A program made the translations under genes and the position numbers. Below, in pieces: positions 163-14,332 of a stretch of 44,417 nt of DNA; position 1 is the stretch's first letter, and every line of letters starts with the position of its first letter. The stretch spans positions 1 to 44,417 of the forward strand of contig CACZAC010000019.1 in assembly GCA_902779125.1 (NCBI GenBank), read 5' to 3'. Source of the stretch: an uncultured Bacteroidales bacterium. Lineage in GTDB: Bacteria; Bacteroidota; Bacteroidia; Bacteroidales; Muribaculaceae. A model generated the notes under the pieces. That model was not told where the DNA came from, searched no databases, and was given only the letters and a program-made list of their open reading frames with translations.

Positions 163-193
163 TTGCTTTTGTGAAGGGAAATCTGTATCTTTG
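163..193 (+). promoter_or_regulatory. Bacteroidetes promoter of the M48/TIR-FGE operon
   Basis: A -33 TTG (163-165) and a -7 TATCTTTG (186-193) are separated by 20 nt, the classic Bacteroidetes layout (TAnnTTTG). This leaves a leader of roughly 95 nt before the ATG at 293. Confidence 0.7.
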
Positions 194-292: not shown

Positions 293-1171
293 ATGAAACC
301 GTCTGATTTCATTCATCCCGAAGATGCCGCTGCATTGCGGCAGATGGAGGGACTGCCAGGGTTTGCAGCGCTTGTCAAGAAGGTTCTGGCCATCGGTATC
401 GAAACTTTGCAATATGGCGTGAACATGGCATCTGCAATCCGGTTGTCAGAGAAACAATTGCCACACATATACCGGCACCTGCCGCCCATCTGCCAACGAA
501 TGGGTATCGCCGAGCCTGAGTTCTACCTGAAAATGAGTCCCATTCCTAATGCGTGGACCATGGGGGATACCCGCATCTACATCACGGTGACTTCGAGCCT
601 GGTTGAGATGATGAACGACGAGGAACTTGATGCTATCATCGCCCATGAGTGCGGCCACATCATGTGCCGCCATGTGCTCTATCACACCGTGGCACAATGG
701 CTAAGTGGCGGCATTGCCTCGCTAGGATTACTGGGCAAGTTGGCAATACCCGTTGAGTATGCCCTGCTGTACTGGAGCCGAAAGAGCGAATTGTCGGCTG
801 ACCGTGCAGCAAGCATCATCACGTCGCCCGAGGTGGTAGCCAGCACGATGGCGCGCTTGTCAGGCGGCCCCAAGAGCCTGACGGAACAAATAGACCTGAG
901 GGAGTGGGCATCCCAAGCCGACGAATACGACAAAATCCAGAATTCCGGCATATGGAACAAGGCTTTGCAATTGTCTGTCATCGCTGGACTTGACCATCCT
1001 TTCTCGGCTGTGCGCGTACGCGAGATTCTCAAGTGGAGCGAGAGCGAACAATACAATATGATTAAGACCGGCAATTTCGCTATTGAACCGCCCGATGGCA
1101 TCTGCCCTAACTGCGGCAACGCCATTGATAAGGACTGGAAATTCTGCCGCAACTGCGGACACCAACTATAA
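293..1171 (+). CDS. M48-family zinc metallopeptidase with C-terminal zinc ribbon
   Basis: 292 residues. The peptidase motif HECGH (His118, Glu119, His122) is preceded by a helix rich in acidic residues (MNDEELDAIIAHE), as in M48 (HtpX/Ste24-like) enzymes, and the likely third zinc ligand is the glutamate in ELSAD near residue 166. A hydrophobic stretch at about 135-160 could be one membrane-associated segment, but there is no clear multi-TM HtpX layout. The last 30 residues are a zinc ribbon with two CxxC knuckles (CPNC, CRNC). It is first in an operon; the next genes follow after 15 and 2 nt, and the third also ends in a zinc ribbon, suggesting the products share a partner or complex. The substrate cannot be told from sequence. 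Confidence 0.88.
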   Translation: MKPSDFIHPEDAAALRQMEGLPGFAALVKKVLAIGIETLQYGVNMASAIRLSEKQLPHIYRHLPPICQRMGIAEPEFYLKMSPIPNAWTMGDTRIYITVTSSLVEMMNDEELDAIIAHECGHIMCRHVLYHTVAQWLSGGIASLGLLGKLAIPVEYALLYWSRKSELSADRAASIITSPEVVASTMARLSGGPKSLTEQIDLREWASQADEYDKIQNSGIWNKALQLSVIAGLDHPFSAVRVREILKWSESEQYNMIKTGNFAIEPPDGICPNCGNAIDKDWKFCRNCGHQL

Positions 1172-1186
1172 AGACCTCACAAGATT

Positions 1187-1441
1187 ATGATTTTCAATAA
1201 ACAAGGATATATCGACATCGATGGTATGATTGCCGCATCGCCTTCATTCCAAAATATCATGGAAGATGGCATCGTGACAGACGAGGAACTGCGCCAGCAA
1301 GCCGACAAGGTCATCAGCCTCATGCATGAGGCCGAACAACGCTTCACCGAGGAGGACCAGCTCTTCATCAAGCGGCTGTTTGCCGAGGCCAATGTCCTCT
1401 CGGCCATCTATCAATATTATGAACTTCAAGAATTGAGATAG
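1187..1441 (+). CDS. Small conserved-looking helical protein, unknown function
   Basis: 84 residues, acidic, predicted mostly helical, with no signal peptide, membrane segment or cysteine motif. I do not recognise the family. It sits 15 nt after the M48 peptidase and 2 nt before a zinc-ribbon membrane protein, so it is almost certainly translated from the same message. The tight packing and codon use like its neighbours support a real gene. A role as a regulator or inhibitor of the peptidase is only a guess from position. Confidence 0.75.
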   Translation: MIFNKQGYIDIDGMIAASPSFQNIMEDGIVTDEELRQQADKVISLMHEAEQRFTEEDQLFIKRLFAEANVLSAIYQYYELQELR

Positions 1442-1443
1442 TC

Positions 1444-1959
1444 ATGTCGAGATATAATACAAAACAACTGCTCAAAGCCAACATGTCACAGATTGACATG
1501 ATAGCCGAAGCCATCGAAAGCGAGTTCAGAAACGACGGTTTTGACGTGATGGTTGACAATCTGATGAGCGGTGGCAAGGACATCAGCATCACCAAGGGCA
1601 ACCTGTTCAAGGCGGTCCTCGGCATGCGCTCTGCACTGAAGATTACGCTCACGCCACATCCTGACGGTGTATTGTTTAATGCCAACGTGGGCATCTTCGG
1701 CCAGCAGGTGATACCCAGTGTTATCACGCTATTCTTCTTCTGGCCCGTGCTGATTACCCAAATTTGGGGACTCGTGAAACAGTCTTCTCTTGACGACCGT
1801 GCCTTGGCCGTCGCCCAGCAAACTGCCGCAAGGGAGAGCGCACCTGCCCCCACCGCCTCCACCCTACTCGACCACGACGTCAAATTCTGCACCCACTGCG
1901 GCCATAAAATGTCCCGCACCGCAAAATTCTGCTCCGAATGCGGAGAAAAAATGATATAG
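1444..1959 (+). CDS. Membrane-associated zinc-ribbon protein
   Basis: 171 residues. An N-terminal mixed alpha/beta part (about 1-85) is followed by a hydrophobic stretch at about 86-110 (VIPSVITLFFFWPVLITQIW) that looks like one membrane segment, then a low-complexity Ala/Pro linker, then a double-CxxC zinc ribbon (CTHC, CSEC) at the very C-terminus. It resembles many bacterial zinc-ribbon proteins of unknown function. It is co-transcribed with the M48 peptidase, which carries the same kind of ribbon, so the two may be recruited to a common partner. No enzymatic motif is visible. Confidence 0.8.
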   Translation: MSRYNTKQLLKANMSQIDMIAEAIESEFRNDGFDVMVDNLMSGGKDISITKGNLFKAVLGMRSALKITLTPHPDGVLFNANVGIFGQQVIPSVITLFFFWPVLITQIWGLVKQSSLDDRALAVAQQTAARESAPAPTASTLLDHDVKFCTHCGHKMSRTAKFCSECGEKMI

Positions 1960-1997
1960 AATATACTTTATTCAGATGATAGATTCCATAAAAAGAT

Positions 1998-3587
1998 ATG
2001 CAATACGATATATTCATCAGCTATAAGCGTAAAAGCTTACCAACAGCCAATAATCTATATTATCGGTTAACGACACGTGGCTATTCCGTATTCTTCGATC
2101 TTGAAGAAATGGGAAGAGATAACTTCAACACCCAATTGCTCAACTATATTGAGAACGCAAAGGATGTGTTTGTTATCCTTGAAGATAGTTCATTAGATGC
2201 ATGCAAAAACGCTGATTGGGAAAACGATTGGTTTTGTCATGAAATTGCTTATGCCTTGGAGAAGAAAAAGAACATCATTCCAATCCTCATAGGAGGATAC
2301 AAGATGCCCCCCATGGATTTCTTCCCTGACAAATTAAAGGAATTGAGTTTTAAGAATGCTCCAGAGTTCAACTTCTCCTTCTTTGAGGCATACCTTGACA
2401 AACTGATTGAGAAAGATTATCTCTTATCTAAACCCAATCTGCAAGAAAAAGCCACATCGGTATTCAAGTTCTATTCCAACGAGAATTGCCAAATATTCAA
2501 AGAAGGCAAACTAGTATGTAGTCTTAAAGGAATGTCAGATGAACCTTACTATTTGCCCGTTCCACGAAAAGGAGATTACCGTTTCAAAGGAGTGAATTCA
2601 ATCACTGCTGAAACTAGAATTATCAAGGAACATATTGAAGCCAAGGAAGAAAAAGAGATAGAGATAGAATGGACAGAACGCAAACCGTTGAAACCTGAAC
2701 AGGAATGGCCAGAGACTAGTATTATTAGCGGAAATAACTATTCAGTTGACTTGGGTGTACTAAAATTCAATATGATTCGTGTAGAGGGAGGGAAAATGAT
2801 GATTGGCGCTACCAACGAACAAATTGAAGAAGCAGAAAGTAACGAACACCCAGCACACCTTATCTCATTGCCAACGTTCTATATTGGTCAGTTTCCAGTT
2901 ACTCAAAACATCTGGGAGTTGGTTATGGGATATAATAAATCAAAAAAACAAGACAAGAGGCAAACTGTAGATAGGGCTTCTTTTGCAGGAGTATCAAGCA
3001 CAGCATTTGGTGCAGGAGTCGGTTCCCTATTTGGTCCTATCGGAACAATAGCCGGAGGCGCTATTGGTTGGTTCGCTGGCCATAAAGACAATATGCATCC
3101 AGTTCAAGACGATGCAGCAGGACATTATCCTGTAGAAAACCTATCTCATGATGAAGCATTAGAATTTGTTCGCCGTATCTCCAAAATGACAAATATACAA
3201 TTCGCTCTTCCGACAGAAGAAGAATGGGAGTATGCTGCTCGAGGAGGACAGAAAAGTAACGGTTTCAAGTACGCAGGCAGCAATGATATAGATGAAGTCT
3301 CATGGTATCGAGATAACGCTAACGGTACAACTCATCCTGTTGGAGAGAAGAAGCCTAACGAACTTGGACTTTATGATATGTGCGGAAATGTATGGGAATG
3401 GACAGAAACTCCTGCTCATTCATACACTTCAGTAGTAGAACATGGTGGTACTAAATTTATTCGCCGCGGCGGCAGTTGGTGGCATGAAGCGAAGAATTGC
3501 CGCGTAGCCAAACGATATGTTTCAGACCATTCAAAGAAAACGAGTGGTTTAGGATTGAGAGTGGTGATTAGAGAAAATGTGAAATAA
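1998..3587 (+). CDS. TIR domain fused to FGE-like domain with glycine-zipper insert
   Basis: 529 residues. Residues 1-145 are a TIR domain: it opens with YDIFISYK and has the WxCxE segment (W78, C80, E82) where NAD-cleaving TIRs carry their catalytic glutamate. Residues about 152-228 form a beta-rich PEGA-like linker. Residues about 250-529 are a formylglycine-generating-enzyme/sulfatase-modifying fold (MIRVEGG, LPTEEEWEYAARGG, GLYDMCGNVWEWT, RRGGSWW). The copper-binding cysteine pair of true FGE is incomplete (only C501 near RGGSWW), so this part is more likely a binding module than an FGly enzyme. A foreign insert at about 312-372 contains a GxxxG glycine zipper (338-361). The gene is visibly richer in A+T than the three genes before it, 38 nt upstream, and is probably a later addition to that operon. 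A NADase triggered through the C-terminal sensor is an inference. Confidence 0.88.
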   Translation: MQYDIFISYKRKSLPTANNLYYRLTTRGYSVFFDLEEMGRDNFNTQLLNYIENAKDVFVILEDSSLDACKNADWENDWFCHEIAYALEKKKNIIPILIGGYKMPPMDFFPDKLKELSFKNAPEFNFSFFEAYLDKLIEKDYLLSKPNLQEKATSVFKFYSNENCQIFKEGKLVCSLKGMSDEPYYLPVPRKGDYRFKGVNSITAETRIIKEHIEAKEEKEIEIEWTERKPLKPEQEWPETSIISGNNYSVDLGVLKFNMIRVEGGKMMIGATNEQIEEAESNEHPAHLISLPTFYIGQFPVTQNIWELVMGYNKSKKQDKRQTVDRASFAGVSSTAFGAGVGSLFGPIGTIAGGAIGWFAGHKDNMHPVQDDAAGHYPVENLSHDEALEFVRRISKMTNIQFALPTEEEWEYAARGGQKSNGFKYAGSNDIDEVSWYRDNANGTTHPVGEKKPNELGLYDMCGNVWEWTETPAHSYTSVVEHGGTKFIRRGGSWWHEAKNCRVAKRYVSDHSKKTSGLGLRVVIRENVK

Positions 3588-3696
3588 ATCAACTATCATT
3601 TTTAGAGTGCATGAAATATGCATCACACATTTGGAATACATCTAATCATACAAAATCTTTTGTGATAATGGTAAACACCACTCCTAACGATACACA

Positions 3697-3727
3697 TTGC
3701 CAATTAGTGAATTATAGTTTATCTTTG
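3697..3727 (+). promoter_or_regulatory. Promoter of the channel-like/sigma/RyR operon
   Basis: TTG (3697-3699), 20-nt spacer, then TATCTTTG (3720-3727). The ATG of the large membrane protein lies 31 nt further on. The 170-nt gap after the TIR-FGE gene and this promoter separate the two transcription units. Confidence 0.7.
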
Positions 3728-3758
3728 GGGGAATGTTTTTTCAAGACTGTTTTAGATT

Positions 3759-6191
3759 ATGATATCGAAAAATGACATATCGGACCCGTTAAGGGAAATA
3801 ATTGACCAGTTGCAGGAGGTGTGGAGTCAAATGGCCAATAAGATACCATACACGTTTAACGAGCATTCCGGGATGCTGACGTTTGACGGCGTGGTGTCGG
3901 TGGTGATTTTTATGGGGCTGATGGTGGGGTTGGCGTTCTTCTTTTACCGAAAGAAAAAGGCGCTGGACTTCTGTGACCGCTATTTGACCTACGCCTTTAT
4001 CGCGGTGTGGATGCTTGGCTTTGTGGTGTATGACTTGGGTATGTACCCCGATCATAGCGCCAATGGCACAAGAGCCTTTTTGGCAATGCTGGGAGTGGCA
4101 CCGATGGCGATTATCCACGCCTTTGAGATGTTTATCTTGCAGAGCGACGTGAGTGCAATCCATGATGGATGCCACGACAGCGCCTGGTTCATGTTTTTCT
4201 TCTCGATAGCCCACCTACTGGCGGCATTCATCAGTATGGTATTCGTCATCAAGCACTTCGGGTTCAATATCGTGGCGAATTTCATCAGGTTAATCAAGAC
4301 ACACTTCTGGCTGAGCAATGTGAAGAATTTGTACGTCTTTTGGGGGATGAATGACGCAACCTACCATCTGGCCAAGGACATCATCGAAAACAAGCATGCT
4401 ACCGATGCTCGCATCTTCATCATACGCGTGAACAGCGACAAGGAGGACCCAAACAAACGTATCGGCATGGATCGCCTGTTCAGTTTCCTCTCTTTGTCGA
4501 ACAACAACCTGGACAATCTGCAGGAATTGCAGAAGCTGGGATGCCTGACAAGCAGCACCTTCGGTTCGTTGACCGAGGCACAGGCAGACAGCGACAATGA
4601 CCTGATCAGACGCGAGTTGAGATTGAGCAGTCTGGTCAGATTGATGGACAACACGACGGGGAAAGTGCACATGTTCTTTCTCAATGATGACGAGTCGTTC
4701 AACATACAGGCCGTGGGCAACCTCAAACGTGATCTCTCAATCAACAATTTTGCCAATCAAGGAAAAATCAAGTTCTATTGCCGAGGCCGTTACAATAGCG
4801 TGCACCGCGTCATTGAGGATGAGCCGACCCACCAAAACATCGAGGTGAGAGTCATCGACTCTGCCCACTTGAGCGTGGAGATGTTGAAGTTGAAAGAGAA
4901 TATCCACCTGCAGCCTGTCAGCTATGTGAACGTTGAGGAGGATGCCACAGTTTCAACGCCCTTCAATGCGCTGGTGGTAGGCTTCAGCGAGGTGGGCATG
5001 GATATGGTGCGGTTCCTTTACGAATACAGCGCTTTTGTCAAGACTGGGAGCACGAACAAAAACGTGATGTCATCGGATTTTCATTGTGATGTGGTAGATA
5101 AGGATATGGCATCGCTTGCAGGACAATTTGTTGCCAATGCGCCAGCCATTAAGCCACGTCTGCATCGTCACCATGTCACCAATTATTCACAGAAACCAGG
5201 AGCCAATCGGCCAAAAATCGACCTCTACGAGTTAGACTGCCAGAGCGTGAAATTTTACAACGGTCTGAAGGGCTGGTTGCCCGCGGTCAACTATATCGTC
5301 CTAGCAACCGGTGATGACGAGTTGAATATGTCCCATGCCGTCAGGTTGTTCAAGTTGGCTATCCGTTACGGAACCGACATGTCACGGTTGCGCATCATGG
5401 TGCGCGTGCGACATGACGACAACGGCCACCTCAAGAAAATTGCCGAGCACTATAACCGCCTGTGGGCGGCCGAGTGCGAGAGTACAGACAAGGACAAAAG
5501 GCATCAACACGTTATTGGGGCTACCACGATTTTTGACGGACCCATCACGCCCTTTGGTTCAACAGAGAGCATCTACACTTTTGACCACATCGTCAACGAG
5601 TCATTAAAGGAGAGCGCCAAACGGTTCAAAGAGAAATATGACCTGTCACTCATTGAGCTGCAGAGAGTCGCAGGTTCTAGAACCGATACTTACGTGAGCT
5701 GGGATGAAGAGCAGAATGATTATATGCAATTGACTGGCGTCCACAAGGGCTTCTCACCCACTTACAGCGGCATGATGCGGTTGAGGCGCGTACAGAGCCA
5801 AAACACTGCCAACAGCATGCACTCCGCCACCAAAGTAGAATTGGCAAAACGAGCCCTCAAAGACGAGTATGAACTCATCAAGATGCATGGCTTGTCGCGC
5901 AAGGTGAACGAGATTGAATACCGCTGGCGAGACTACAGCAATGTGCCGATTGACCACATCCAGCGGGTGATGGACGTGTTGGCGCAGACAGAGCACCTGC
6001 GATGGGTAGCGTCACACGAAATCCTGGGTTATCAGGAATACACGCCTCGCGACCCTGAAGATCCAGGCAAAAAGGACGAGGCAAGGCTGTTACATGGCTA
6101 TATGTGCGACTGGGATTTGCTCTCCACCGAGACCAAGAGCTACGACTACAACGCCGTCGACGTTTCAATCAGTGAATACGGATATGAATGA
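3759..6191 (+). CDS. Four-TM protein with two Rossmann-like NAD-binding domains and RyR-like C-terminus
   Basis: 810 residues. Four hydrophobic segments lie at about 43-63, 75-95, 106-128 and 143-166. A first Rossmann-like unit follows (YVFWGMNDATYHLAKDI, about 192-208), and a second starts near 402 (FNALVVGFSEVGMDMVRFL), resembling the TrkA-N/RCK domains of ligand-gated channels such as CASTOR/POLLUX relatives. No K+ selectivity filter (TVGYG type) is visible, so channel activity is not shown. The end (about 740-800: TEHLRWVASHEILGY..., a conserved Trp, then charged residues) matches the start of RyR domains, though more divergent than the two other copies in this cluster. It heads an operon with a small membrane protein, a sigma factor and a C39/RyR protein. 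Likely role (inference): membrane effector or sensor gated by a nucleotide ligand. Confidence 0.82.
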   Translation: MISKNDISDPLREIIDQLQEVWSQMANKIPYTFNEHSGMLTFDGVVSVVIFMGLMVGLAFFFYRKKKALDFCDRYLTYAFIAVWMLGFVVYDLGMYPDHSANGTRAFLAMLGVAPMAIIHAFEMFILQSDVSAIHDGCHDSAWFMFFFSIAHLLAAFISMVFVIKHFGFNIVANFIRLIKTHFWLSNVKNLYVFWGMNDATYHLAKDIIENKHATDARIFIIRVNSDKEDPNKRIGMDRLFSFLSLSNNNLDNLQELQKLGCLTSSTFGSLTEAQADSDNDLIRRELRLSSLVRLMDNTTGKVHMFFLNDDESFNIQAVGNLKRDLSINNFANQGKIKFYCRGRYNSVHRVIEDEPTHQNIEVRVIDSAHLSVEMLKLKENIHLQPVSYVNVEEDATVSTPFNALVVGFSEVGMDMVRFLYEYSAFVKTGSTNKNVMSSDFHCDVVDKDMASLAGQFVANAPAIKPRLHRHHVTNYSQKPGANRPKIDLYELDCQSVKFYNGLKGWLPAVNYIVLATGDDELNMSHAVRLFKLAIRYGTDMSRLRIMVRVRHDDNGHLKKIAEHYNRLWAAECESTDKDKRHQHVIGATTIFDGPITPFGSTESIYTFDHIVNESLKESAKRFKEKYDLSLIELQRVAGSRTDTYVSWDEEQNDYMQLTGVHKGFSPTYSGMMRLRRVQSQNTANSMHSATKVELAKRALKDEYELIKMHGLSRKVNEIEYRWRDYSNVPIDHIQRVMDVLAQTEHLRWVASHEILGYQEYTPRDPEDPGKKDEARLLHGYMCDWDLLSTETKSYDYNAVDVSISEYGYE

Positions 6192-6227
6192 TAAACGGAT
6201 TATTAACTTCTAAATATTGATATAAAT

Positions 6228-6647
6228 ATGGGAACTTTGACATTAATAACAAATGGTTTGCAGAGTGCCGGAAAAGCTTCCTATTGGAATAGTGCTGTAT
6301 CAATCACACTAATTATCTGTGTAACAGTATTTCTGATAACCGTTGCGGTTTTTCTTCTCATGTACTTTAAGAATAGATTGCGTCTCAATTCTATAAAGGA
6401 CAAAGAGCTTGCCGAAAAAGCGTATAATTTAAAGCTAAAAGAGAGTCAAGAAAAAGAAAGAATTGAGGAAGAAAAGAGGCTCTACCGCAAGCAGATAGCT
6501 GGCATACTGGAAAAGTGTGCCATCGGAAAAGTAATAACCACTGAAAATGGCAAAGAAAAAGAAACTAAAGTTTCAGAACTCAAACCTGAAAATGTTAATC
6601 TATACATCAATAAATTAGAGGAGCTAATAACCAAATTGGGTTCTTAA
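6228..6647 (+). CDS. Small single-TM coiled-coil protein
   Basis: 139 residues. One membrane segment at about 23-46 (ITLIICVTVFLITVAVFLLM) is followed by a positively charged stop-transfer stretch, then a long charged helix likely to be a coiled coil (about 55-95) and a short C-terminal region. No family recognised. It is 36 nt after the channel-like gene and about 28 nt before the sigma gene, in the same operon, so it may be an accessory subunit of the membrane protein. Confidence 0.75.
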   Translation: MGTLTLITNGLQSAGKASYWNSAVSITLIICVTVFLITVAVFLLMYFKNRLRLNSIKDKELAEKAYNLKLKESQEKERIEEEKRLYRKQIAGILEKCAIGKVITTENGKEKETKVSELKPENVNLYINKLEELITKLGS

Positions 6648-6675
6648 ACAGAGTGACCCAGAGGTTGTGAGACAA

Positions 6676-7224
6676 ATGACTGACCAAGAAATCATAGAAG
6701 GACTCATTGCGCGAGACGAGCGGGTGACTGGGGAGTTTTTCTTCGGGCAGTGCCGGCCGTTGATTTGCAGCATCATTGGGCTGGTATTCAACGGCAGAGT
6801 GGACTATGACGAACTGGTCAATGAACTATATCTCTACTTGATGGAGAACGATGCGGCACGATTGCGCGGCTTTGAATACCGTAGCTCGGTATATCAGTGG
6901 CTCAAGGTACTCGCTATCCGTTATTTCATCAAGCGGCGTGACCACATGATTGATGACGTGAGCCATGAGCGACCCACTCATGAAGAGGAGAGCGCCGAGG
7001 ACAGCCACGCCGATGAGGATCTGGAACGCTTGTTCGGGTTGATGCCCAACAAGCGCTATGTGATGGTTATTAAAAGGCTAATCCTGGAGGACGAGAATCC
7101 CGAACATTTGGCACGCGAGATGAACGTCACTGTTGCTAACCTGTATAATATCAAACGGCGTGCGATGGCTCAACTGGCACACGTCGCCCTAAAAGACATT
7201 CAAGAATATGGCAAACAACAATAA
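6676..7224 (+). CDS. ECF-type RNA polymerase sigma factor
   Basis: About 182 residues. Region 2 is seen at about 37-90 (VDYDELVNELYLYLME ... SVYQWLKVLAIRYFIKRR, the core-binding and -10 recognition helices). An acidic linker follows, then region 4 helix-turn-helix (about 125-172: PEHLAREMNVTVANLYNIKRRA). I chose the ATG at 6676; a GTG at 6667 is in frame and possible. Its end overlaps the next gene by 17 nt, the arrangement typical of sigma/anti-sigma pairs, and the next protein starts with an anti-sigma-like sequence. The target promoters are unknown; the three promoters in this cluster are of the ordinary housekeeping type. Confidence 0.88.
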   Translation: MTDQEIIEGLIARDERVTGEFFFGQCRPLICSIIGLVFNGRVDYDELVNELYLYLMENDAARLRGFEYRSSVYQWLKVLAIRYFIKRRDHMIDDVSHERPTHEEESAEDSHADEDLERLFGLMPNKRYVMVIKRLILEDENPEHLAREMNVTVANLYNIKRRAMAQLAHVALKDIQEYGKQQ

Positions 7225-8143
7225 GCAGATTTCCGACGAACTACTAGCGGCTTTTCTTGACGGCAACACAACAGTCCAAGAGACCCGACAAGTACTGGAA
7301 GCAATGAGAGAGAATGCATCATTGCGAGAGGCCATTAACATAGCACTACAGGTGCATCGCGACCCGCGGGCAGTCACCCTGCCCATGATGCAGATGGCGG
7401 CAGAGTGCGGTGAAAACCTATGTGGTGTAATGTGCGAGGCCTATATCCTCAACAGGCGCGGCATAGCCTATCATGACGATGAATTAATTGCAACAGCTCG
7501 AGAGAAACGTTGGCTCAAGCCCGAAGGTTCGCCACTGCATGCCATGGGACAGTTGCTGGCACATTACGGGCTGATGGTTACCCACAGCTATGACGCCACC
7601 ATCACCGATATATCCGCTGCTCTTGACCTCGACAATGATGTAATTGTGGCTGTGGACAACGGCAAACTATACCCTGAAAGCAACGACAAGGATGATGCCG
7701 CCAACCATGCCATCGTGGTCACCGCCATCGACAAAGGAAAGAACGAAGTCACCATCTATGACCCCGAAAAAGGCTCCATCCAGACAGTGGATTTCGACCA
7801 TTTTCACAACGCATGGCAGACGTCGCTCAACTACATGGTGCGCGTGCTGCAAGAGGCTGGAGAATATAACCCACGACCCATCAATCTGGATGATATCGAA
7901 CTGACCGAAGACCTGCAAGAACTGCGCGAAGCCATCGCCGAGAATGCTCATGACGTTTGGGCCGAGGCTCGCATAAGAGAAGGCTGGACATTTGGCCCCC
8001 GACGCGATGACACGCTCAAGCATCATCCCGACCTAATCCCCTACTCCGCCCTGTCTGACAGCGAGAAAGAGTATGACCGCCTCATGGCCATCAAGACCAT
8101 CAAACTGGTAAAAAAACTCGGCTTCGATATCGTCAAAAGATAG
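7208..8143 (+). CDS. Anti-sigma-like / C39-like cysteine peptidase / RyR domain fusion
   Basis: 311 residues in three parts. Residues 8-45 (SDELLAAFLDGNTT...) follow the pattern of anti-sigma N-termini but lack the zinc ligands. Residues about 60-215 look like a C39-like papain-fold peptidase: Cys72 in NLCGVMCEAYIL, His167 in NHAIVVTAID, Asp185 in VTIYDPEKG. Residues about 235-311 are a clear RyR domain (DVWAEARIREGWTFGPRRD, HPDLIPY, EYDR, LGFDIVK). It overlaps the sigma gene by 17 nt, so the pair is translationally coupled. A plausible reading (inference) is that the RyR part senses a ligand and controls either the peptidase or sequestration of the sigma factor. The RyR part closely resembles the stand-alone RyR protein at 11766-12065. 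Confidence 0.85.
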   Translation: MANNNKQISDELLAAFLDGNTTVQETRQVLEAMRENASLREAINIALQVHRDPRAVTLPMMQMAAECGENLCGVMCEAYILNRRGIAYHDDELIATAREKRWLKPEGSPLHAMGQLLAHYGLMVTHSYDATITDISAALDLDNDVIVAVDNGKLYPESNDKDDAANHAIVVTAIDKGKNEVTIYDPEKGSIQTVDFDHFHNAWQTSLNYMVRVLQEAGEYNPRPINLDDIELTEDLQELREAIAENAHDVWAEARIREGWTFGPRRDDTLKHHPDLIPYSALSDSEKEYDRLMAIKTIKLVKKLGFDIVKR

Positions 8144-8198
8144 AACTAAATAGATAGACCCACTCAAAAACGCTTTCAAAGCCAAAAAACAATTTGAC

Positions 8199-9761
8199 AT
8201 GTATATCACAAGTATAAAATTCAAGCTAGCATTAAAGTGGTTCCTCCATTCTGAATATGATTATCTGCTAGTGTATGCTAGTGGCGCGAATAAACTTGAC
8301 TATGAAATTAGCAGAGAAGTATTAACTTATAGACAACTCATAGATGCTCAAACGGGAGATTTAGTATGTTTCCTTCATTTTATTGAGTCAGAACACGAGC
8401 AAGATTCACTTATCCGTGCCAACCATACAGATTCGATTGAAAATTTCATGATATATCATATCAATACAGAAAGAGTTAGAAGACTGACACATCGGGACCT
8501 TTACTGTGGAGTAGGGCTTAAGACAACCTATGAAACTACATGGGATTTATGTGAGTTTTTTGACATCATGCAATGTGAGTTGCCCGCTTTTATTTTAATC
8601 CATAGAGATAGAAGCAATACTGATTTACTATCTTTAACTCATCAATATTCGTTATTTTCAATCAAGAATCTAGAAGATTTACATTCTCTACTCACACCCA
8701 TAAAAATAATAAACAACTATCAATCCGACATCACCCCTATCAGAGACAAACTCACTAAACTGCAGAAAATTCCAGATGCTATAGAAATACAACAGCAGAT
8801 TGATAGCATCAGAAGAGGCATTGAAACATTGAAAAAAGAAACCATTGATGATCTTTGTCTCAAACGCACAGAGGTTTGCCATGCCATACATTTGATTCTT
8901 TTAAGTTACAATAAGAATTTCGAATTAACTGACATGAATTTCAATTCCTTCAAAGAATTACTCACTAAAGAAGGATTAATCAATGAGTTTTTATCAAAGC
9001 ATCGAGACCTTTTTAATCTTTTTAAAAAAATTGACAAGAAAATACGGAAGTGGAACAATAGTAAGAACGATAAAATAGAACTACTCATAGATAATTTGAA
9101 ACAGAAACAAAACGCATTGATGCAATCACAGAGCATAAAAGAGCAAATAAATCAATTAATACAAAAAGAGGAAGAAATAATAAACACATATAAGAAAACT
9201 ATTAAAGAAACGCTACTCATTGACAATTCATCAGAATTATTGTATGCAGTTGACAACAATAGTTCTACCCTGCCCTTGATTATTGAAAAAACCATTAGCA
9301 ATTACTTAGATAAAAACCAAGTAATTAGAAGCATAGTCAGAGATATTAGAGATAAGGTCCATCAACAAGCATTTGATATTTTTATCTCGTGTAAAAGTGA
9401 AGACTATAAATATGGAGAACAACTATTTCATCTCTTATCCAACAGAGGATTTCACCCATTCATCGCATCAAAATCTTTAAGAGCCGTTGGATGCGATTTA
9501 TATAGTAAAGTTATCTCTGAGGTAATTGACTCATGCAAGCATATGATCGTATTTGCAACAGATCAACGATATGTAGAATCTCCATACGTGGAATCAGAAT
9601 GGAGTATGTTCGTTAACGAGCTAAAAGCAGGGAGAAAGACAGGAAAATTACTTACTATTATCCCAGACCCAATTCAAGGCCAAAAACTGCCGATTGACCT
9701 TAGACAAAGAGAAATATTTCCCACTGATAACTATGAAGCTATCTGCGATTATTTAAAATAA
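8199..9761 (+). CDS. Coiled-coil protein with C-terminal TIR domain
   Basis: 520 residues. The N-terminal part (1 to about 165) is an alpha/beta region I do not recognise. Residues about 180-370 are charged and helical with likely coiled coil (many Lys/Glu/Gln, two helical stretches). Residues about 390-520 are a TIR domain: FDIFISCKSED, ASKSLRAVG loop, then SPYVESEW where Glu467 is the likely catalytic acid. The final segment is a typical TIR beta-E/alpha-E. It follows the C39/RyR gene by 55 nt with no promoter seen between, so it may be read from the same message, but its base composition is distinctly A+T-rich compared with that gene. It could oligomerise through the coiled coil to activate the TIR NADase (family knowledge plus inference). 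Confidence 0.85.
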   Translation: MYITSIKFKLALKWFLHSEYDYLLVYASGANKLDYEISREVLTYRQLIDAQTGDLVCFLHFIESEHEQDSLIRANHTDSIENFMIYHINTERVRRLTHRDLYCGVGLKTTYETTWDLCEFFDIMQCELPAFILIHRDRSNTDLLSLTHQYSLFSIKNLEDLHSLLTPIKIINNYQSDITPIRDKLTKLQKIPDAIEIQQQIDSIRRGIETLKKETIDDLCLKRTEVCHAIHLILLSYNKNFELTDMNFNSFKELLTKEGLINEFLSKHRDLFNLFKKIDKKIRKWNNSKNDKIELLIDNLKQKQNALMQSQSIKEQINQLIQKEEEIINTYKKTIKETLLIDNSSELLYAVDNNSSTLPLIIEKTISNYLDKNQVIRSIVRDIRDKVHQQAFDIFISCKSEDYKYGEQLFHLLSNRGFHPFIASKSLRAVGCDLYSKVISEVIDSCKHMIVFATDQRYVESPYVESEWSMFVNELKAGRKTGKLLTIIPDPIQGQKLPIDLRQREIFPTDNYEAICDYLK

Positions 9762-9804
9762 GATTAATTCAATTATTCTTATAATGCTATTCAAGTAAAA
9801 CATC

Positions 9805-9812
9805 TATCTTTG
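9805..9812 (+). promoter_or_regulatory. Promoter -7 element with very short leader
   Basis: TATCTTTG at 9805-9812, followed by CAAAATATCA and the start codon at 9823. No good TTG lies 20 nt upstream. The predicted transcript starts only a few bases before the ATG, so the message is nearly leaderless. Confidence 0.55.
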
Positions 9813-9822
9813 CAAAATATCA

Positions 9823-11592
9823 ATGATTATGGAACAGAGTAAATATGACATTTTCATCAGCTACTCACGTATAGACTACCTTGATGAATATGAAAATGAG
9901 ATTCCAGGTAATGAGATTTCAAAAATCTTGCAAGCATTGAGCGATGAACATATTACATACTGGATTGATAAAAAAGGCATTGATCATGGTGCAAATATTC
10001 CAGTAGAAATTGAGAATAATATCAAAGCTTCTCGCATCATTCTTTTTCTCTCTACGTCTAATTCCAATTTTGCATCCAATTGGACACTCAATGAAATAGC
10101 TTATGCTCATAAAATAAGTAAGCACATCATACCAGTACGTATTGATAAATCACAATTTGGTGAAGGAATTGGCTTTTTTCTTGCTCCTTCAAATACCATT
10201 GATTATTACAATGATCCTGAACAAAAGCGCATTGATATGATTAATGCTATCAATCAACAGCTTAACATAATAAAACAAGAAGAACAAATTGCAGAAAAAA
10301 TTGAATTGTCTTGGGAAGAACTGAATCAAAGAGAGAAAGATATCGAGTCTAAAAAACATTCGTTACTGCATAATTCAAAAAAACAGATTACCGATAAAAG
10401 TATACTAAAAGAATTACTAGAAACGATTTGCCCTAAAAAAGACAACTCTAATACAAACGCTTTGTCACAAAAGGATCAACTAGACAATCTTAGGAGAAGT
10501 AACGATTTGCTGGAAGAAGACAAAAAACGCTTAAATAATAAAAACACAATATTTAAGACAATCGCAATCATTACATCTCTATCAGCATTATGTCTATTAT
10601 TTTGTACCATATTTCAGAATTTATATTCCAAACAAACTCCAAAACAAGCGTTTGAGACAATGTCTGAGCAAGATCCAATGTTGATATTTTCAGGAGGAGG
10701 ATCAGTCTATAATTACATCTGTGAGCATCAAGCGGATAGTGATACCATTAGTCTTGCCAATTATGATAATGCCATCTATATCAACCAACCAAGCGGCAAC
10801 GCTTGGTCATTGCTTCTCGAAGAAGCAATGACAGACAAAAGGAGATTCTGCTCTATATGCCTTTCATCAGATATTATTGACACTACTAGGTTTAACAATT
10901 ATGATGCGTTTTCTAATGATACACGTATCGTTCAGCTACTCATAGGCCATGACCCTCTAATAATTTATGCTCAGAAAAAGCCTTCATTCATTTCTGATGA
11001 TGTTAATATCATCACACTTCAAGAACTCAGTACAATTTTCAACAACAAAAAGATAAAAAGAGAATTTAGATTTTTTTCTACATCCAGAAACAGCGGAACG
11101 CTTCGCACTTATCAACGTTATCTTTCATTAGTTGACACTACATTACAACTTGAATCTCTCTGTTTCCCTTTCTACGAAGATGATTCTCCTGACTATATGA
11201 AGAGTTTGAATCAAGTCCGTGATCCACTTAAAAAGAAACCATTTTTTGTATTAGGGAGCAAATACTATTTTCCAAAGGAAATTGTAGATCAATCAATCCC
11301 TCTCATCCTTATGGATGATACAATCACCTTGAAAAAACCAGTTTACATCTATTTTATTGCAACAAAAGACCCAATGAATAAAAAATTTAAGATCAATAAA
11401 AGAATTATTAGTTTCTTGAAGAAGATTGGCGCAAAGCAAAATATTGATGCGACAATTTGGAATAGCATTGAAAAAGAGGGTTGCATCGCATCACAAGGTG
11501 ATCTCATCATCGACATTAACGACACGTCTAAAGTCTTTTATCAAGAAGAGAAAAAACGATTGAATCATTTGAACTTAAAAACTTTAAAATAG
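9823..11592 (+). CDS. TIR domain anchored by one TM helix to an outer PstS-like binding domain
   Basis: 589 residues (Met3 is an alternative start). Residues 5-145 are TIR: YDIFISYSRIDYLDEY, then SNWTLNEIAYA with Glu91 as the likely catalytic residue. A charged helical linker (about 150-242) leads to a single TM helix (about 244-264: FKTIAIITSLSALCLLFCTI). The rest, about 285-570, resembles periplasmic phosphate-binding proteins of the PstS type: FSGGGSVYNYI (289-299), ITLQELSTIFNNK (397-409), NSGTLRTYQRYL (423-434). With a cytoplasmic TIR the binding domain would face the periplasm, so this looks like a one-component transmembrane receptor. The gene is A+T-rich. Whether it binds phosphate, another anion or a phage product is unknown; the ligand loops are diverged from true PstS. 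Confidence 0.87.
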   Translation: MIMEQSKYDIFISYSRIDYLDEYENEIPGNEISKILQALSDEHITYWIDKKGIDHGANIPVEIENNIKASRIILFLSTSNSNFASNWTLNEIAYAHKISKHIIPVRIDKSQFGEGIGFFLAPSNTIDYYNDPEQKRIDMINAINQQLNIIKQEEQIAEKIELSWEELNQREKDIESKKHSLLHNSKKQITDKSILKELLETICPKKDNSNTNALSQKDQLDNLRRSNDLLEEDKKRLNNKNTIFKTIAIITSLSALCLLFCTIFQNLYSKQTPKQAFETMSEQDPMLIFSGGGSVYNYICEHQADSDTISLANYDNAIYINQPSGNAWSLLLEEAMTDKRRFCSICLSSDIIDTTRFNNYDAFSNDTRIVQLLIGHDPLIIYAQKKPSFISDDVNIITLQELSTIFNNKKIKREFRFFSTSRNSGTLRTYQRYLSLVDTTLQLESLCFPFYEDDSPDYMKSLNQVRDPLKKKPFFVLGSKYYFPKEIVDQSIPLILMDDTITLKKPVYIYFIATKDPMNKKFKINKRIISFLKKIGAKQNIDATIWNSIEKEGCIASQGDLIIDINDTSKVFYQEEKKRLNHLNLKTLK

Positions 11593-11765
11593 TCATTATT
11601 ATCTCACATATCGTATATTAGATTAATAATCAATGATTTATAGCATTTATTTGATCATCACACAAGAGTTTACAAATGAGTCAAAGTTCATTCGTCAATG
11701 TTAAAAAGTGATAGAAATGAGAGATGATAGGGCTCTTTATTGATGTTTATGGGTAAAATGAAACT

Positions 11766-12065
11766 ATGACAATGAAAAAGAAGAATGATTATAGGCCGGA
11801 GCCGGTGGATACTAGCGATGTCACCGTGCCAGAAGAACTGATGGAACTGGTAGAGGAAATGTCACGCAATGTGCATGAGGTGTGGGCCAGGAGCCGTATG
11901 GACCAGGGGTGGACCTGGGGGGAACAACGTGACGACGAGCGCAAGAAACATCCGGATTTGGTCCCTTACGATGAGTTGACTGAAGAGGAGAAAGACTATG
12001 ACCGTGATACTAGCCTTCAGACGATTAAGCTGATTCTGAAGTTGGGCTTCAAAATCTCGAAATAA
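11766..12065 (+). CDS. Stand-alone RyR domain protein
   Basis: 99 residues, almost entirely one RyR domain (about 30-98): HEVWARSRMDQGWTWGEQRDD, HPDLVPYDEL, DYDR, LGFKIS. It is close in sequence to the RyR part of the C39 fusion at 7208-8143 and has the same moderate G+C, unlike the A+T-rich TIR genes between them. RyR domains are the repeated modules of animal ryanodine receptors; bacterial versions are of unknown function. A 173-nt gap precedes it with no clear TAnnTTTG site, and a strong terminator follows. It may act as a free ligand-binding partner for the other cluster proteins (inference). Confidence 0.88.
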   Translation: MTMKKKNDYRPEPVDTSDVTVPEELMELVEEMSRNVHEVWARSRMDQGWTWGEQRDDERKKHPDLVPYDELTEEEKDYDRDTSLQTIKLILKLGFKISK

Positions 12066-12115: not shown

Positions 12116-12154
12116 AAGAAGGCCGGAAACTGAAATTCAGTTTCCGGCCTTCTT
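12116..12154. terminator. Bidirectional terminator closing two convergent units
   Basis: A perfect 19-bp inverted repeat (AAGAAGGCCGGAAACTGAA with its complement, 1-nt centre) lies between the RyR gene (+) and fructokinase (-). The core GGCCGGAAACTGAA is G+C-rich and both outer flanks give short T-rich runs on the exit strand. It marks the border between the TIR/RyR cluster and the fructan locus. Confidence 0.85.
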
Positions 12155-12178: not shown

Positions 12179-13072
12179 TTACTTGGCGGCTGCGAGAAGG
12201 TCGCGGGGCAAGGTGGGCATGGCGCCGTTCTGCGTGCAGACATAGGCGCTGACCTTGACGGCCAACTCATGAGCCTCGGGGACGGGCTTGCCGTTGAGGA
12301 TGGCGGCACAGAAGGAGCCTGTGAACGAGTCACCGGCGCCGACGGTGTCGGCCACTTCAACCTTAGGCGTCTCTTGGAACGACATCTGGCCACGCGTGAA
12401 GACGTAGGAGCCGTTGGTGCCGCAGGTGAGCACGAGCATATCGAGGTCATACTTGCCCAGGATGAGCCAGCACTTGTTCTCGATGTCAAGGCCAGGATAG
12501 CCGAACATGCGTCCGATGGTCACGAGCTCCTCATCATTGATTTTGAGGATGTTGCAACGGCGCATCGACTGCTGGATGATTTCCTTGTTGTAGAACTGCT
12601 GACGCAGGTTGATGTCGAAAATCTTCATGCAATCGTTGGGAGTGGCATCAAGGAAACGGTGGATGTTCTCGCGCGAAACGACATTGCGCTGAGCCAGCGA
12701 GCCGTAGCACACGGCGCGGCAGTTGGCAGCGATTTCCTCAATCTCGGGCGTGAAGGGGATGTTGTCCCATGCCACGTTCTCCTTGATGTCATAGGTGGGG
12801 ATTCCTTCCTCGTTGAGCGTCACCTGTACGGTGCCGGTGGGATAAGGCACACGCGGCATGAGGTACTTGAGGCCATGCTCCTCCAGGGCCTCGATGGTCT
12901 CCTCAGCAAGCTTATCCTCGCCCAGAGCACTGATGGCGATTGAGTTGTCACTGCCGACGAATTGTCCGGCATGATAGGCGAAGTTGGCGGGGGCACCGCC
13001 CAGTTTCTTACCTTCGGGGAGAACATCCCACAGGGCCTCGCCCAGACCCACTACATAACGTTTATCACTCAT
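12179..13072 (-). CDS. Fructokinase (PfkB family)
   Basis: 297 residues, usual length for ribokinase/PfkB sugar kinases. The substrate motif GGAPANFAYH lies near the N-terminus and the catalytic/anion-hole motif DTVGAGDSFTG (catalytic Asp in GAGD) near the C-terminus. It phosphorylates fructose with ATP in the cytoplasm. As the last gene of the fructan locus, just after the sugar transporter, it receives the fructose released by the GH32 enzymes; this context is the reason for naming fructose rather than another sugar. Confidence 0.92.
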   Translation of the reverse strand: MSDKRYVVGLGEALWDVLPEGKKLGGAPANFAYHAGQFVGSDNSIAISALGEDKLAEETIEALEEHGLKYLMPRVPYPTGTVQVTLNEEGIPTYDIKENVAWDNIPFTPEIEEIAANCRAVCYGSLAQRNVVSRENIHRFLDATPNDCMKIFDINLRQQFYNKEIIQQSMRRCNILKINDEELVTIGRMFGYPGLDIENKCWLILGKYDLDMLVLTCGTNGSYVFTRGQMSFQETPKVEVADTVGAGDSFTGSFCAAILNGKPVPEAHELAVKVSAYVCTQNGAMPTLPRDLLAAAK

Positions 13073-13092
13073 AGTTGTCAGTTTTTCAGTTG

Positions 13093-14262
13093 TCAGTTTT
13101 CAGTTTGAGTTTTGAGTTGCTTGATGTAGGTGAACAGGTAGATGACACCGATGGCCATCACTGCCACGGCACCAGCCTGGCCGACAGCGTCGCTGGCGAA
13201 GCCCATGAGCAGCGGGAAAATCGTGCCGCCAAACAGGCCCATGATCATCAGGCCGGACACCTCGTTCTGCTTCTTGGGCATCGACTCGAGAGCCGTAGCA
13301 AAACACATCGAGAAGATGTTGGAGTTACCGTAGCCCACGAGAGCGATAGCGGTGTACAGAATCCACTTCTCGTGACCGAAGAACATGCCACACATCGACA
13401 GGGCCATCATGATGACGCTGATGAGGAAGAACGTTCTCATCTTGAGCACACGCAGGAAGAACGAACCGGTCAAGCAACCGATGGTACGGAAGATGAAGTA
13501 GAGCGAGGCAGCAAATGCGGCGTCATTCAAGTTCATGCCCAGACGCTCCATGAGAATCTTCGGGGCGGTGGTGTTGGTGCCCACATCGATGCCCACATGG
13601 CACATAATGCCCAGGAACGAGAGCAGCACGATGGGCGTGCCCAAGAGCTTGAAGCACTCCACAAAGGTCGAAGGTTTGCCTTCGATTTTCTCTTCATGGA
13701 TTGGTGTAACTGCTAGCAGAACTGTTGAGAATGTACCTACTACAAAGAAGATGGCGAACAGCACACGCCAGTCAAGACCCAGGCTGGGAATCACCTGCAT
13801 GGCACCCCACGAGGCCAGATAAGGCGCGATGAACGAAGCGATGGCCTTGATGAACTGGCCGAAGGTGAGCGTTGATGCCAGGTTGCCACCACCCATCACG
13901 GTCGATACCAGCGGGTTGAGCGAAGTCTGCATCAGTGCATTACCGATGCCCAGCAGCGAGAAGGCGATGAGCATCACAGGGAAACTGTTGCCGAACAGCG
14001 GAATAAACAGCGAGAGAATGGTCACTACCAGTGACAAGAGCACCGTTTTCTTACGGCCTATCTTGTTCATCAGCATGCCTGTGGGAACACTGAAGATGAG
14101 GAACCAGAAGAATACCAGCGAGGGTAAGGTGTTGGCCACCTTGTCCGTGAGGCCGAGGTCTGCTTTCACATAGTTGGAGGCGATACCCACCAGGTCAACG
14201 AAGCCCATGCAGAAGAAGCACAGCATGACCGAGATAATCGCGATTTTATTAGTCTTTGCCAT
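13093..14262 (-). CDS. MFS sugar transporter, likely fructose importer
   Basis: 389 residues with about 12 hydrophobic segments. Typical MFS signatures are present: the loop after TM2 (MLMNKIGRKKTVLLS) and a repeated hydrophobic pattern in the second half. It fits the FucP-like sugar:H+ symporters of the inner membrane. It lies between GH32 and fructokinase and would bring monomeric fructose from the periplasm into the cytoplasm. Spacers on both sides carry short A+T-rich direct repeats. Confidence 0.9.
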   Translation of the reverse strand: MAKTNKIAIISVMLCFFCMGFVDLVGIASNYVKADLGLTDKVANTLPSLVFFWFLIFSVPTGMLMNKIGRKKTVLLSLVVTILSLFIPLFGNSFPVMLIAFSLLGIGNALMQTSLNPLVSTVMGGGNLASTLTFGQFIKAIASFIAPYLASWGAMQVIPSLGLDWRVLFAIFFVVGTFSTVLLAVTPIHEEKIEGKPSTFVECFKLLGTPIVLLSFLGIMCHVGIDVGTNTTAPKILMERLGMNLNDAAFAASLYFIFRTIGCLTGSFFLRVLKMRTFFLISVIMMALSMCGMFFGHEKWILYTAIALVGYGNSNIFSMCFATALESMPKKQNEVSGLMIMGLFGGTIFPLLMGFASDAVGQAGAVAVMAIGVIYLFTYIKQLKTQTEN

Positions 14263-14279
14263 TATTTAAAAATTTTAAG

Positions 14280-14332
14280 TTGTAAGTTTTAGTTTTAAGC
14301 TAAAAGCTAATAGCTAAAGGCTAATAGCTGAT
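14280..14332. repeat. Short AT-rich direct repeats in gene spacer
   Basis: Between the MFS start and the GH32 stop is a run of near-identical units (AGCTAAAAGCTAATAGCT, then AGCTAAAGGCTAATAGCT), with TTTTAAG/TTTTAG repeats before it. A related spacer with TTGTCAGTTTT repeats separates the MFS and fructokinase genes near 13076-13105. Function unknown. Confidence 0.6.

What the first reader, a model, noticed from the sequence alone, without database searches (positions are those of the whole stretch)
293..12065. Candidate NAD-derived signalling/defence cluster combining three TIR proteins, three RyR-type domains, a Rossmann membrane protein and a sigma switch
Seen: TIR domains in three genes (Glu82, Glu467, Glu91 as likely catalytic residues), RyR domains in two genes and a RyR-like tail in a third, a four-TM protein with two Rossmann-like units, an ECF sigma with an overlapping anti-sigma-like gene, and an M48 peptidase with zinc ribbon, all on one strand and bounded by terminators. 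Known: many TIRs cleave NAD and some make cADPR-type messengers; animal RyR channels respond to cADPR. Inferred: the TIRs write a nucleotide signal, the RyR domains read it, and the membrane protein, peptidase and sigma factor are outputs. I know of no described system with this set.
Basis: partly seen in the sequence, partly recalled or inferred. Interest (0 to 1): 0.92.

Follow-up and report, generated by a model that had tools for sequence, protein, structure and literature searches.

The report
Bacterial TIR and ryanodine-domain signalling cluster
A bacterium carries genes that look able to make a signal molecule from NAD, next to a membrane channel-like protein and a gene switch that both carry the ligand-binding domain of animal ryanodine receptors; this may be an undescribed bacterial immune or stress circuit and a small model for how such signals reach ryanodine receptors.

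Summary
Eleven plus-strand genes at 293-12065 include three TIR proteins (Glu82, Glu467, Glu91 confirmed), a standalone RyR protein, a C39-like peptidase-RyR protein overlapping an ECF-like sigma gene, and an 810-aa membrane protein (P5) with an RyR-like tail. P5 looks channel-like: AlphaFold pLDDT 88, best fold matches are Slo/BK channels (low TM-scores), and charge topology implies a re-entrant helix before RCK-like domains; the K+ filter is absent. The four ligand residues of the phage RyR enzyme RyDEP are kept in P5 homologs (three in 65 of 65, one in 63 of 65). Clustering is not local chance: 36 of 46 de-replicated P5 clusters have a TIR or another RyR gene nearby; in 22 genomes 24 of 76 TIR genes lie within 10 kb of P5/RyR (0.8 expected); in five distant loci (four families) a shorter RCK-RyR protein sits directly beside a TIR gene. 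I read this as a Thoeris-like circuit with a new reader and outputs: TIRs write, RyR domains read, a channel-like protein and a sigma switch respond. Signal, channel activity and antiphage role are untested. A key preprint on TIR systems was not available, so novelty is provisional.

The parts
293..1171 (+). M48 metallopeptidase with C-terminal zinc ribbon
   Evidence: PF01435 E 6.3e-18, Zn_Ribbon_1 E 4.1e-8; M48 family in 8 of 79 P5 loci, window included
1187..1441 (+). 84-aa protein of unknown function, travels with the M48 gene
   Evidence: no Pfam hit; family in 7 loci
1444..1959 (+). 171-aa protein with C-terminal zinc ribbon
   Evidence: Zn_Ribbon_1 E 1.8e-7
1998..3587 (+). TIR (Glu82) fused to an FGE-sulfatase (formylglycine-enzyme-like) domain
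   Evidence: TIR_2 E 1.3e-12, FGE-sulfatase E 3.6e-41; Glu82
3759..6191 (+). P5: channel-like membrane region, RCK-like tandem Rossmann domains, C-terminal RyR-like domain (H746, W749, H779, D796)
6228..6647 (+). one-TM coiled-coil protein (TM read by eye)
   Evidence: no Pfam family over cut-off; partial weak PADLOC hit to a 2TM effector, E 9.5e-5; homologs in 7 of 79 loci
6667..7224 (+). ECF-like sigma factor
   Evidence: TIGR02937 E 2.5e-10, below cut-off; C39-RyR gene beside it in 13 of 14 loci that have it
7208..8143 (+). P8: anti-sigma-like N-terminus (inferred), C39/papain-like peptidase (C72, C76, H167), RyR domain
8199..9761 (+). TIR (Glu467) with a long N-terminal region of unknown family
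   Evidence: TIR_2 E 1.2e-11; N-terminal region in 2 of 79 loci, window included
9823..11592 (+). TIR (Glu91), probable TM helix (by eye), PBP-like C-terminal domain
   Evidence: TIR_2 E 6e-14, PBP_like_2 E 1.6e-6
11766..12065 (+). standalone RyR protein (99 aa)
   Evidence: PF02026 E 1.4e-36; matches animal RyR and B. theta 3nrt; standalone RyR family in 36 loci
12116..12154 (.). hairpin at the right-hand boundary (18 pairs, scored as a minus-strand terminator)

Best explanation
The cluster is a TIR-to-RyR nucleotide signalling circuit, Thoeris-like in logic. Step 1 (inferred): TIR proteins, triggered through their variable partner domains, convert NAD+ into an ADP-ribose-type signal, most likely a cyclic isomer such as 2'- or 3'cADPR. 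Step 2 (inferred, supported by conserved residues): RyR domains bind it with the His/Trp/His/Asp pocket known from RyDEP. Step 3a (inferred): in P5 the RyR domain sits on RCK-like domains behind a pore-like membrane region, so binding gates an ion pathway with a non-K+ filter and disturbs the membrane. Step 3b (inferred): in P8 binding switches a papain-like peptidase that cuts its own flexible linker next to an anti-sigma-like N-terminus, freeing the sigma factor. Step 3c (inferred): the free 99-aa RyR protein buffers or destroys the signal. Shown by computation: gene content, conservation, charge topology, predicted fold and linkage. Most likely purpose: antiphage or stress response.
For: Linkage: standalone RyR in 20 of 24 P5+ genomes against 16 of 174 P5- genomes, Fisher p 4e-14 (hits sorted by hand, test); 24 of 76 TIR genes in 22 of the 24 P5+ genomes within 10 kb of P5 or RyR against 0.8 expected, 24 of 26 RyR genes within 10 kb of a TIR or P5; neighbour clustering of 79 loci without prior labels ranks standalone RyR first (36 loci), a TIR family and a TPR family next (20 each). 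Minimal form: shorter RCK-RyR proteins directly beside TIR in L172-L175 and L212; TrkA_N and RyR both over Pfam cut-off in L172-L175. Ligand residues: P5 H746, W749, D796 65 of 65, H779 63 of 65; standalone RyR 36, 36, 36 and 35 of 36; C39-RyR 13, 13, 13 and 11 of 13; roles from PMC13232231. Channel: six best of eight fold hits at E <= 0.001 are Slo/BK-type or labelled ion/potassium channel; topology; MthK RCK, E 4.4e-4, for distant member L175; L175 membrane region aligns with 2TM-RCK K+ channels. Sigma switch: 13 of 13 C39-RyR genes overlap a sigma gene; C72, C76, H167 in 13 of 13. Partner genes typical of bacterial immunity in some loci: SIR2-TIR, nSTAND1, caspase, CHAT.
Against: No assay exists for any protein here. 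TM-scores of the P5 fold hits are 0.25-0.28 (query) and two of the eight hits are other Rossmann enzymes. The K+ filter is absent. L212 has one N-terminal membrane helix and no visible pore region, and Pfam does not see its RyR. hhalign of P5 with the Slo-like_RCK/RyR protein of L106 is weak, probability 35. Of eight phage RyR homologs tested in PMC13232231 six bound 2'/3'cADPR and none cleaved it, unlike RyDEP itself, so RyR could mean sensor, sponge or eraser. The anti-sigma reading rests on gene overlap and sub-threshold hits in two of five N-termini, neither being the window's. 17 of 65 P5 loci have neither TIR nor another RyR in the same-strand run; within 10 kb only 11 of 23 P5 genes have a TIR and 12 of 23 an RyR. 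RyR without TIR also occurs: L183, L184, L185, L214, and AAA-like RyR proteins in L216 and L217. No PADLOC or NCBIfam system model fits beyond partial TIR-level hits.
Confidence: 0.6

Rival explanations
1. RyR domains here are erasers or sponges, not readers: the TIRs act as NAD-depleting toxins or feed other effectors, and RyR proteins limit self-damage by hydrolysing or binding the product, as RyDEP does for phages.
For: The only biochemically tested relatives bind or hydrolyse 2'/3'cADPR (PMC13232231); the free RyR protein is the commonest neighbour family (36 loci) and keeps the His/Asp pair.
Against: RyR domains are fused to a channel-like RCK protein and to a sigma-linked peptidase, which suits reading; no free RyR gene was called in the distant loci L172-L175 and L212.
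Confidence: 0.2
2. The circuit senses envelope or metabolic stress rather than phage, and the RyR/RCK domains read ordinary adenine nucleotides (ATP, ADP, NAD).
For: PrsW-type protease beside P5 in L098 (Pfam E 3.9e-39); M48 peptidase and sigma output; human RyR3 repeat structures are titled as complexes with ATP, ADP or AMP-PCP.
Against: TIR, SIR2-TIR, nSTAND1, caspase and CHAT partners and patchy distribution (24 of 198 genomes) look like immune loci.
Confidence: 0.2
3. Coincidental clustering in a defence island: unrelated TIR, RyR and sigma genes share an integration hot-spot.
For: Order and content vary between loci; several promoter-like elements inside the cluster.
Against: 24 of 76 TIR genes near P5/RyR against 0.8 expected; adjacent TIR/RCK-RyR genes in five distant loci; overlapping sigma/C39-RyR genes in 13 of 13.
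Confidence: 0.05

Closest known systems
Thoeris (TIR ThsB makes cADPR-type signals; ThsA or other effectors read them)
   Same: TIR genes with the catalytic Glu beside a putative reader/effector; partial ThsB-type hits to window TIRs
   Different: No known Thoeris effector among the ten window proteins scanned; reader is an RyR domain, outputs a channel-like RCK protein and a sigma switch
RyDEP phage RyR-domain proteins (PMC13232231)
   Same: Same PF02026 domain and the same His/Trp/His/Asp contacts
   Different: Bacterial genome contigs, fused to RCK/membrane and peptidase domains, beside TIRs; enzymatic activity unknown
Slo/BK and MthK RCK-gated channels; plant CASTOR/POLLUX (recalled; abstract start of PMC6697748 seen in the listing)
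   Same: Membrane region followed by RCK-like domains; fold and sequence matches
   Different: Ends in an RyR domain; no TVGYG filter; activity untested
Animal ryanodine receptors, RyR repeats (R12)
   Same: Homologous RyR domain (free window RyR against RyR2 chains E about 1e-65) in a channel-like protein
   Different: Giant channels with a different architecture (recalled); here an RyR domain sits behind RCK-like domains
B. thetaiotaomicron 'putative ryanodine receptor' 3nrt/6uag
   Same: Standalone ~100-aa RyR protein (E 2.3e-38)
   Different: Its own gene neighbourhood was not examined here

Membership tests
Thoeris | TIR protein with catalytic Glu | tested here: met
   Three TIR_2 hits over cut-off, Glu in all three
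Thoeris | known Thoeris effector partner | tested here: not met
   none in the ten window proteins scanned with Pfam, PADLOC and NCBIfam
Thoeris | TIR product activates the effector and protects against phage | not testable with these tools
   needs biochemistry and plaque assays
RyR domain PF02026 | curated cut-off passed | tested here: met
   P8 and the 99-aa protein. Window P5: not by Pfam, but by profile, and over cut-off in four P5 homologs
RyDEP-like ligand pocket | His75, Trp78, His100, Asp117 equivalents | tested here: met
   roles from PMC13232231. In 10 other fused RyR proteins Asp is aligned in only 4
RyDEP-like glycosidase | hydrolyses 2'/3'cADPR | not testable with these tools
   high conservation did not separate enzyme from sponge in PMC13232231
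RCK-gated ion channel | RCK domains behind TM helices | tested here: met
   Slo/BK fold hits with low TM-scores; hhalign with L161 (the L172 protein; TrkA_N and RyR over cut-off), probability 98.1 over profile columns 177-750
RCK-gated ion channel | re-entrant pore helix between the last two TM helices | tested here: inconclusive
   charge topology in 65 homologs supports it; L175 aligns with K+ channel pores; L212 shows none
K+ channel | TVGYG-type selectivity filter | tested here: not met
   absent in window P5 and in L172-L175
ECF sigma factor | NCBIfam sigma70-ECF cut-off | tested here: not met
   40.2 of 42.9 bits, E 2.5e-10; called ECF-like only
sigma / anti-sigma pair | overlapping partner gene | tested here: met
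   overlap in 13 of 13 pairs
sigma / anti-sigma pair | recognisable anti-sigma domain | tested here: inconclusive
   sub-threshold RseA_N and zf-HC2 in two of five N-termini
papain-like C39 peptidase | family hit and conserved Cys and His | tested here: met
   C39_2, C39 and C70 over cut-off; C72, C76, H167 in 13 of 13

The most novel reading that the evidence does not exclude
This is a bacterial counterpart of the animal cADPR-ryanodine-receptor axis: TIR enzymes make a cyclic ADP-ribose isomer that directly gates an RyR-domain-bearing RCK channel with a novel filter, and in parallel triggers proteolytic release of a sigma factor, coupling membrane shut-down to a transcriptional alarm. The two-gene TIR plus RCK-RyR pair would be its minimal form.
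Probability: 0.4. Interest if true: 0.95.

Novelty: new variant of a known kind. Interest (0 to 1): 0.86.

Why it matters
Whether cADPR-type nucleotides act on ryanodine receptors directly is an old question (recalled; PMC13232231 also calls for studies of it), and RyDEP showed phage RyR domains meeting these signals only as antagonists. Here bacteria encode RyR domains fused to a channel-like RCK protein and to a sigma-linked peptidase, next to TIR genes, in a recurring arrangement and in a minimal two-gene form. If RyR domains prove to be readers, bacteria supply small testable RyR-gated proteins, a new effector class for TIR signalling, and a route from a TIR signal to transcription.

Tried and rejected
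No result: P5 alignment in viral contigs (25 pattern matches, none confirmed); P5 in 72,556 plasmid records (none); window P5 against PDB sequences (none at E <= 1); L175 N-terminal piece against PDB sequences (two meaningless hits). Phage records with RyR (25 of 50,697) are of Gordonia, Arthrobacter, Erwinia and Pseudomonas phages plus two short human faecal records, not followed. AAA-like RyR proteins: two of the 20 f19 genomes with RyR were looked at (G366, G449), AAA hits sub-threshold, no TIR beside them; set aside as another architecture. Literature: ten searches listed no paper on a host RyR-TIR or RyR-RCK system. PMC9503650, PMC7159879 and PMC8195603 were only searched for RyR terms (no bacterial RyR passage); PMC13174449 and PMC13142454 seen as passages. 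The closest TIR survey (Yirmiya 2025, doi 10.64898/2025.12.03.692087) is not held and Burroughs 2015 (recalled) was not looked up by id, so absence from print is not established.

Counts and dropped rows: the A2 alignment used 65 of 75 full-length P5 proteins (ten left out by hand). The genome-contig scan kept the best 80 of 140 relatives, 78 loci. Gene calls are my own greedy ORF calls; P5 was missed in 3 of 79 loci. For the linkage test coordinates were copied by hand; P5 tails were removed from the RyR list; G004 and G112 (weak or broken P5) were not searched for TIR. P5-negative RyR genomes: 14 of 16 searched (G146, G073 left out); by hand count 7 of 16 RyR genes there have a TIR within 10 kb, one of the TIRs below cut-off. 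Of the 16 regions, twelve are same-family RyR loci, several picked because a TIR was known to be near; TIR was called in 9 of these 12 and they are not counted as evidence.
Full report
1. What is there. Its named relatives are mostly Bacteroidales MAGs; the closest P5 is from an uncultured Prevotellaceae, RUG362 (83% in the best segment). Eleven plus-strand genes fill 293-12065. Pfam and NCBIfam give: M48 peptidase with zinc ribbon; an 84-aa unknown; a zinc-ribbon protein; TIR-FGE; P5, with no family over cut-off in its own sequence; a small membrane protein; an ECF-like sigma (40.2 bits, cut-off 42.9); P8, C39-like peptidase with RyR; a TIR at the end of a long unknown protein; a TIR with a PBP-like domain; and a standalone RyR.

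2. P5 is RCK channel-like with an RyR tail. AlphaFold2 on 65 sequences gave mean pLDDT 88, pTM 0.83. Foldseek against PDB: of eight hits with E <= 0.001 the first six are Slo/BK-type or labelled ion or potassium channel, E 6e-5 to 3.9e-4; TM-scores are only 0.25-0.28, and the other two are S-adenosylhomocysteine hydrolases. hhalign with a shorter protein over the Pfam cut-offs for both TrkA_N and RyR (L161, the same gene as in L172) covers profile columns 177-750 at probability 98.1; with the RCK/RyR protein of L106 it is weak, 35. Net charge in 65 homologs: the TM1-TM2 loop is positive in 63 and the segment after TM4 in 65, while the loops before and after helix 105-125 are negative in 51 and 61. 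With the RCK part in the cytosol this puts both ends of helix 105-125 outside, so it is probably re-entrant like a pore helix. For the distant member L175, phmmer finds MthK (E 4.4e-4), and a class-wide search hits mostly ~340-365-aa proteins over its membrane and first RCK region. Of 14 such loci aligned pairwise, six show a TVGYG or TVGFG filter by my pattern, eight do not (one of these, L197, is itself an RCK-RyR protein); E-values there are for single-locus comparisons. In the alignment the LDAxY pore-helix motif is kept in L175 and the filter is not. L212 shows no pore region.

3. The RyR pocket is kept. Preprint PMC13232231 (seen: outline, part 1 of the whole text, sections 4, 5, 22 and 27, part of the references, and passages) shows RyDEP hydrolysing 2'/3'cADPR with H75, W78, H100 and D117 at the ligand, and six of eight homologs binding without cleavage. 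By spacing and alignment the equivalents in P5 are H746, W749, H779 and D796: 65, 65, 63 and 65 of 65. In 36 standalone RyRs they are 36, 36, 35, 36; in 13 C39-RyRs 13, 13, 11, 13; in 10 other fused RyRs 10, 10, 9, 4, where the alignment may be off.

4. Co-occurrence. P5 was found in 24 of 198 genomes of the family, 12 of 30 genera, RyR in 37 of 198. Standalone RyR is in 20 of 24 P5+ and 16 of 174 P5- genomes (Fisher p 4e-14; sorted by hand). In 22 P5+ genomes 24 of 76 TIR genes lie within 10 kb of P5 or RyR (0.8 expected from window coverage and rounded genome sizes); without the window's genus 19 of 51. RyR genes have a TIR or P5 within 10 kb in 24 of 26 cases, P5 genes a TIR in 11 of 23 and an RyR in 12 of 23. 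A genome-contig scan gave 78 further loci; with the window, 50 of 79 hold a non-P5 RyR gene and 49 of 79 a TIR gene. At 60% P5 identity 46 clusters remain: TIR in 32, RyR in 30, either in 36, both in 26. Against the reading: 17 of 65 P5 loci have neither in the same-strand run, and an immediate neighbour of P5 is TIR in 23 and RyR in 16 of 76.

5. A minimal pair. Phylum-wide 27 of 395 genomes have RyR: the window's, 20 of f19, and six others. Of the six, four (G231, G210 of one genus; G199; G413) have a shorter RCK-RyR protein directly beside a TIR gene (L172-L175), one (G286, L218) has the TIR three genes away, and one (G293, L215) is a fragment at a contig end with no TIR called in 10 kb. 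A class-wide search with the L175 protein added L212 (TIR adjacent) and L214 (two RyR genes, no TIR called). The Glu column is kept in all six of these TIRs, though the L218 alignment is doubtful; the L172 TIR frame is short and may be broken. L212 passes TrkA_N but not Pfam RyR; its RyR call rests on my HMM.

6. The sigma switch. The C39-RyR gene overlaps a sigma gene in 13 of 13 loci where it was called. C72, C76 and H167 are invariant; the third catalytic position reads Asp or Asn. The model (pLDDT 80.5) has a low-confidence linker, residues 48-68, with an invariant Pro-Met at 59-60. Foldseek finds the B. theta RyR (target TM 0.85-0.94) and 2bu3 (E 3.6e-5; a papain-like phytochelatin-synthase relative as recalled). 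Two of five N-termini give sub-threshold anti-sigma hits; the window's own gives only a weak ClpS hit. Ligand-triggered self-cleavage is my inference.

7. Neighbours point to immunity. Other P5 loci carry SIR2-TIR with nSTAND1 (L053, L127), caspase with LRR (L059), CHAT, kinase-like and trypsin-like genes (L056), and further RyR proteins with Slo-like_RCK hits (L106 over cut-off, L097 below). This is from 20 proteins chosen by hand, without a control set.

8. Mechanism and likelihood. Most likely: TIR writes an ADPR-type signal, RyR reads it, P5 and P8-sigma are outputs, the free RyR tunes the signal (0.6 for the circuit; channel activity of P5 about 0.55; signal-dependent sigma release about 0.5). 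Eraser, stress and coincidence rivals are given separately.

9. Novelty. As a TIR-to-effector circuit it belongs to the Thoeris kind of logic, but with a reader and outputs that no search here found described. PMC13232231 mentions the B. theta RyR-like structure and a bacterial and viral clade; a term search of it found neither TrkA nor host RyR. The unavailable survey by Yirmiya et al. could change this. Hence 'new variant of a known kind'.

Noticed in passing
window 9823-11592: TIR with a probable TM helix (by eye) and a PBP-like C-terminal domain: cytosolic TIR with a probably external sensor, a TLR-like layout.
   Followed up: no
window 186-193, 3720-3727, 9805-9812: TATCTTTG, matching the Bacteroidetes -7 promoter element as recalled, occurs six times in the window (1.5 expected; 1 of 100 shuffles reached six), three of them upstream of genes of this cluster.
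   Followed up: partly
L098:13134-13838, L068:12180-12935: PrsW-type intramembrane protease (Pfam, L098) after P5; an L068 family that looks similar by eye is in 7 loci, 7 of 7 on P5's strand. PrsW cleaves anti-sigma RsiW in Bacillus (recalled).
   Followed up: partly
L056:12487-20068: Cassette with an RyR protein of 513 aa, trypsin-like, kinase-like and CHAT proteins; its RyR family is in 10 loci.
   Followed up: partly
L163, L216, L217: AAA-like proteins with two C-terminal RyR domains in two f19 genomes looked at; 20 f19 genomes have RyR hits; no TIR beside them.
   Followed up: partly
L100:12117-15566: 1150-aa protein beside P5 whose start resembles DUF4062 by eye, reported as TIR-like NADases (PMC13174449, abstract start and passages seen).
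   Followed up: no
MT836850.1 and MT837259.1: Short human faecal 'Bacteriophage sp.' records with RyR 62-63% identical to the window's free RyR; phage anti-signal proteins or host DNA.
   Followed up: no
window 12179-15997: Minus-strand genes that look by eye like a fructokinase, an MFS transporter and an inulinase-like enzyme, perhaps a fructan locus.
   Followed up: no
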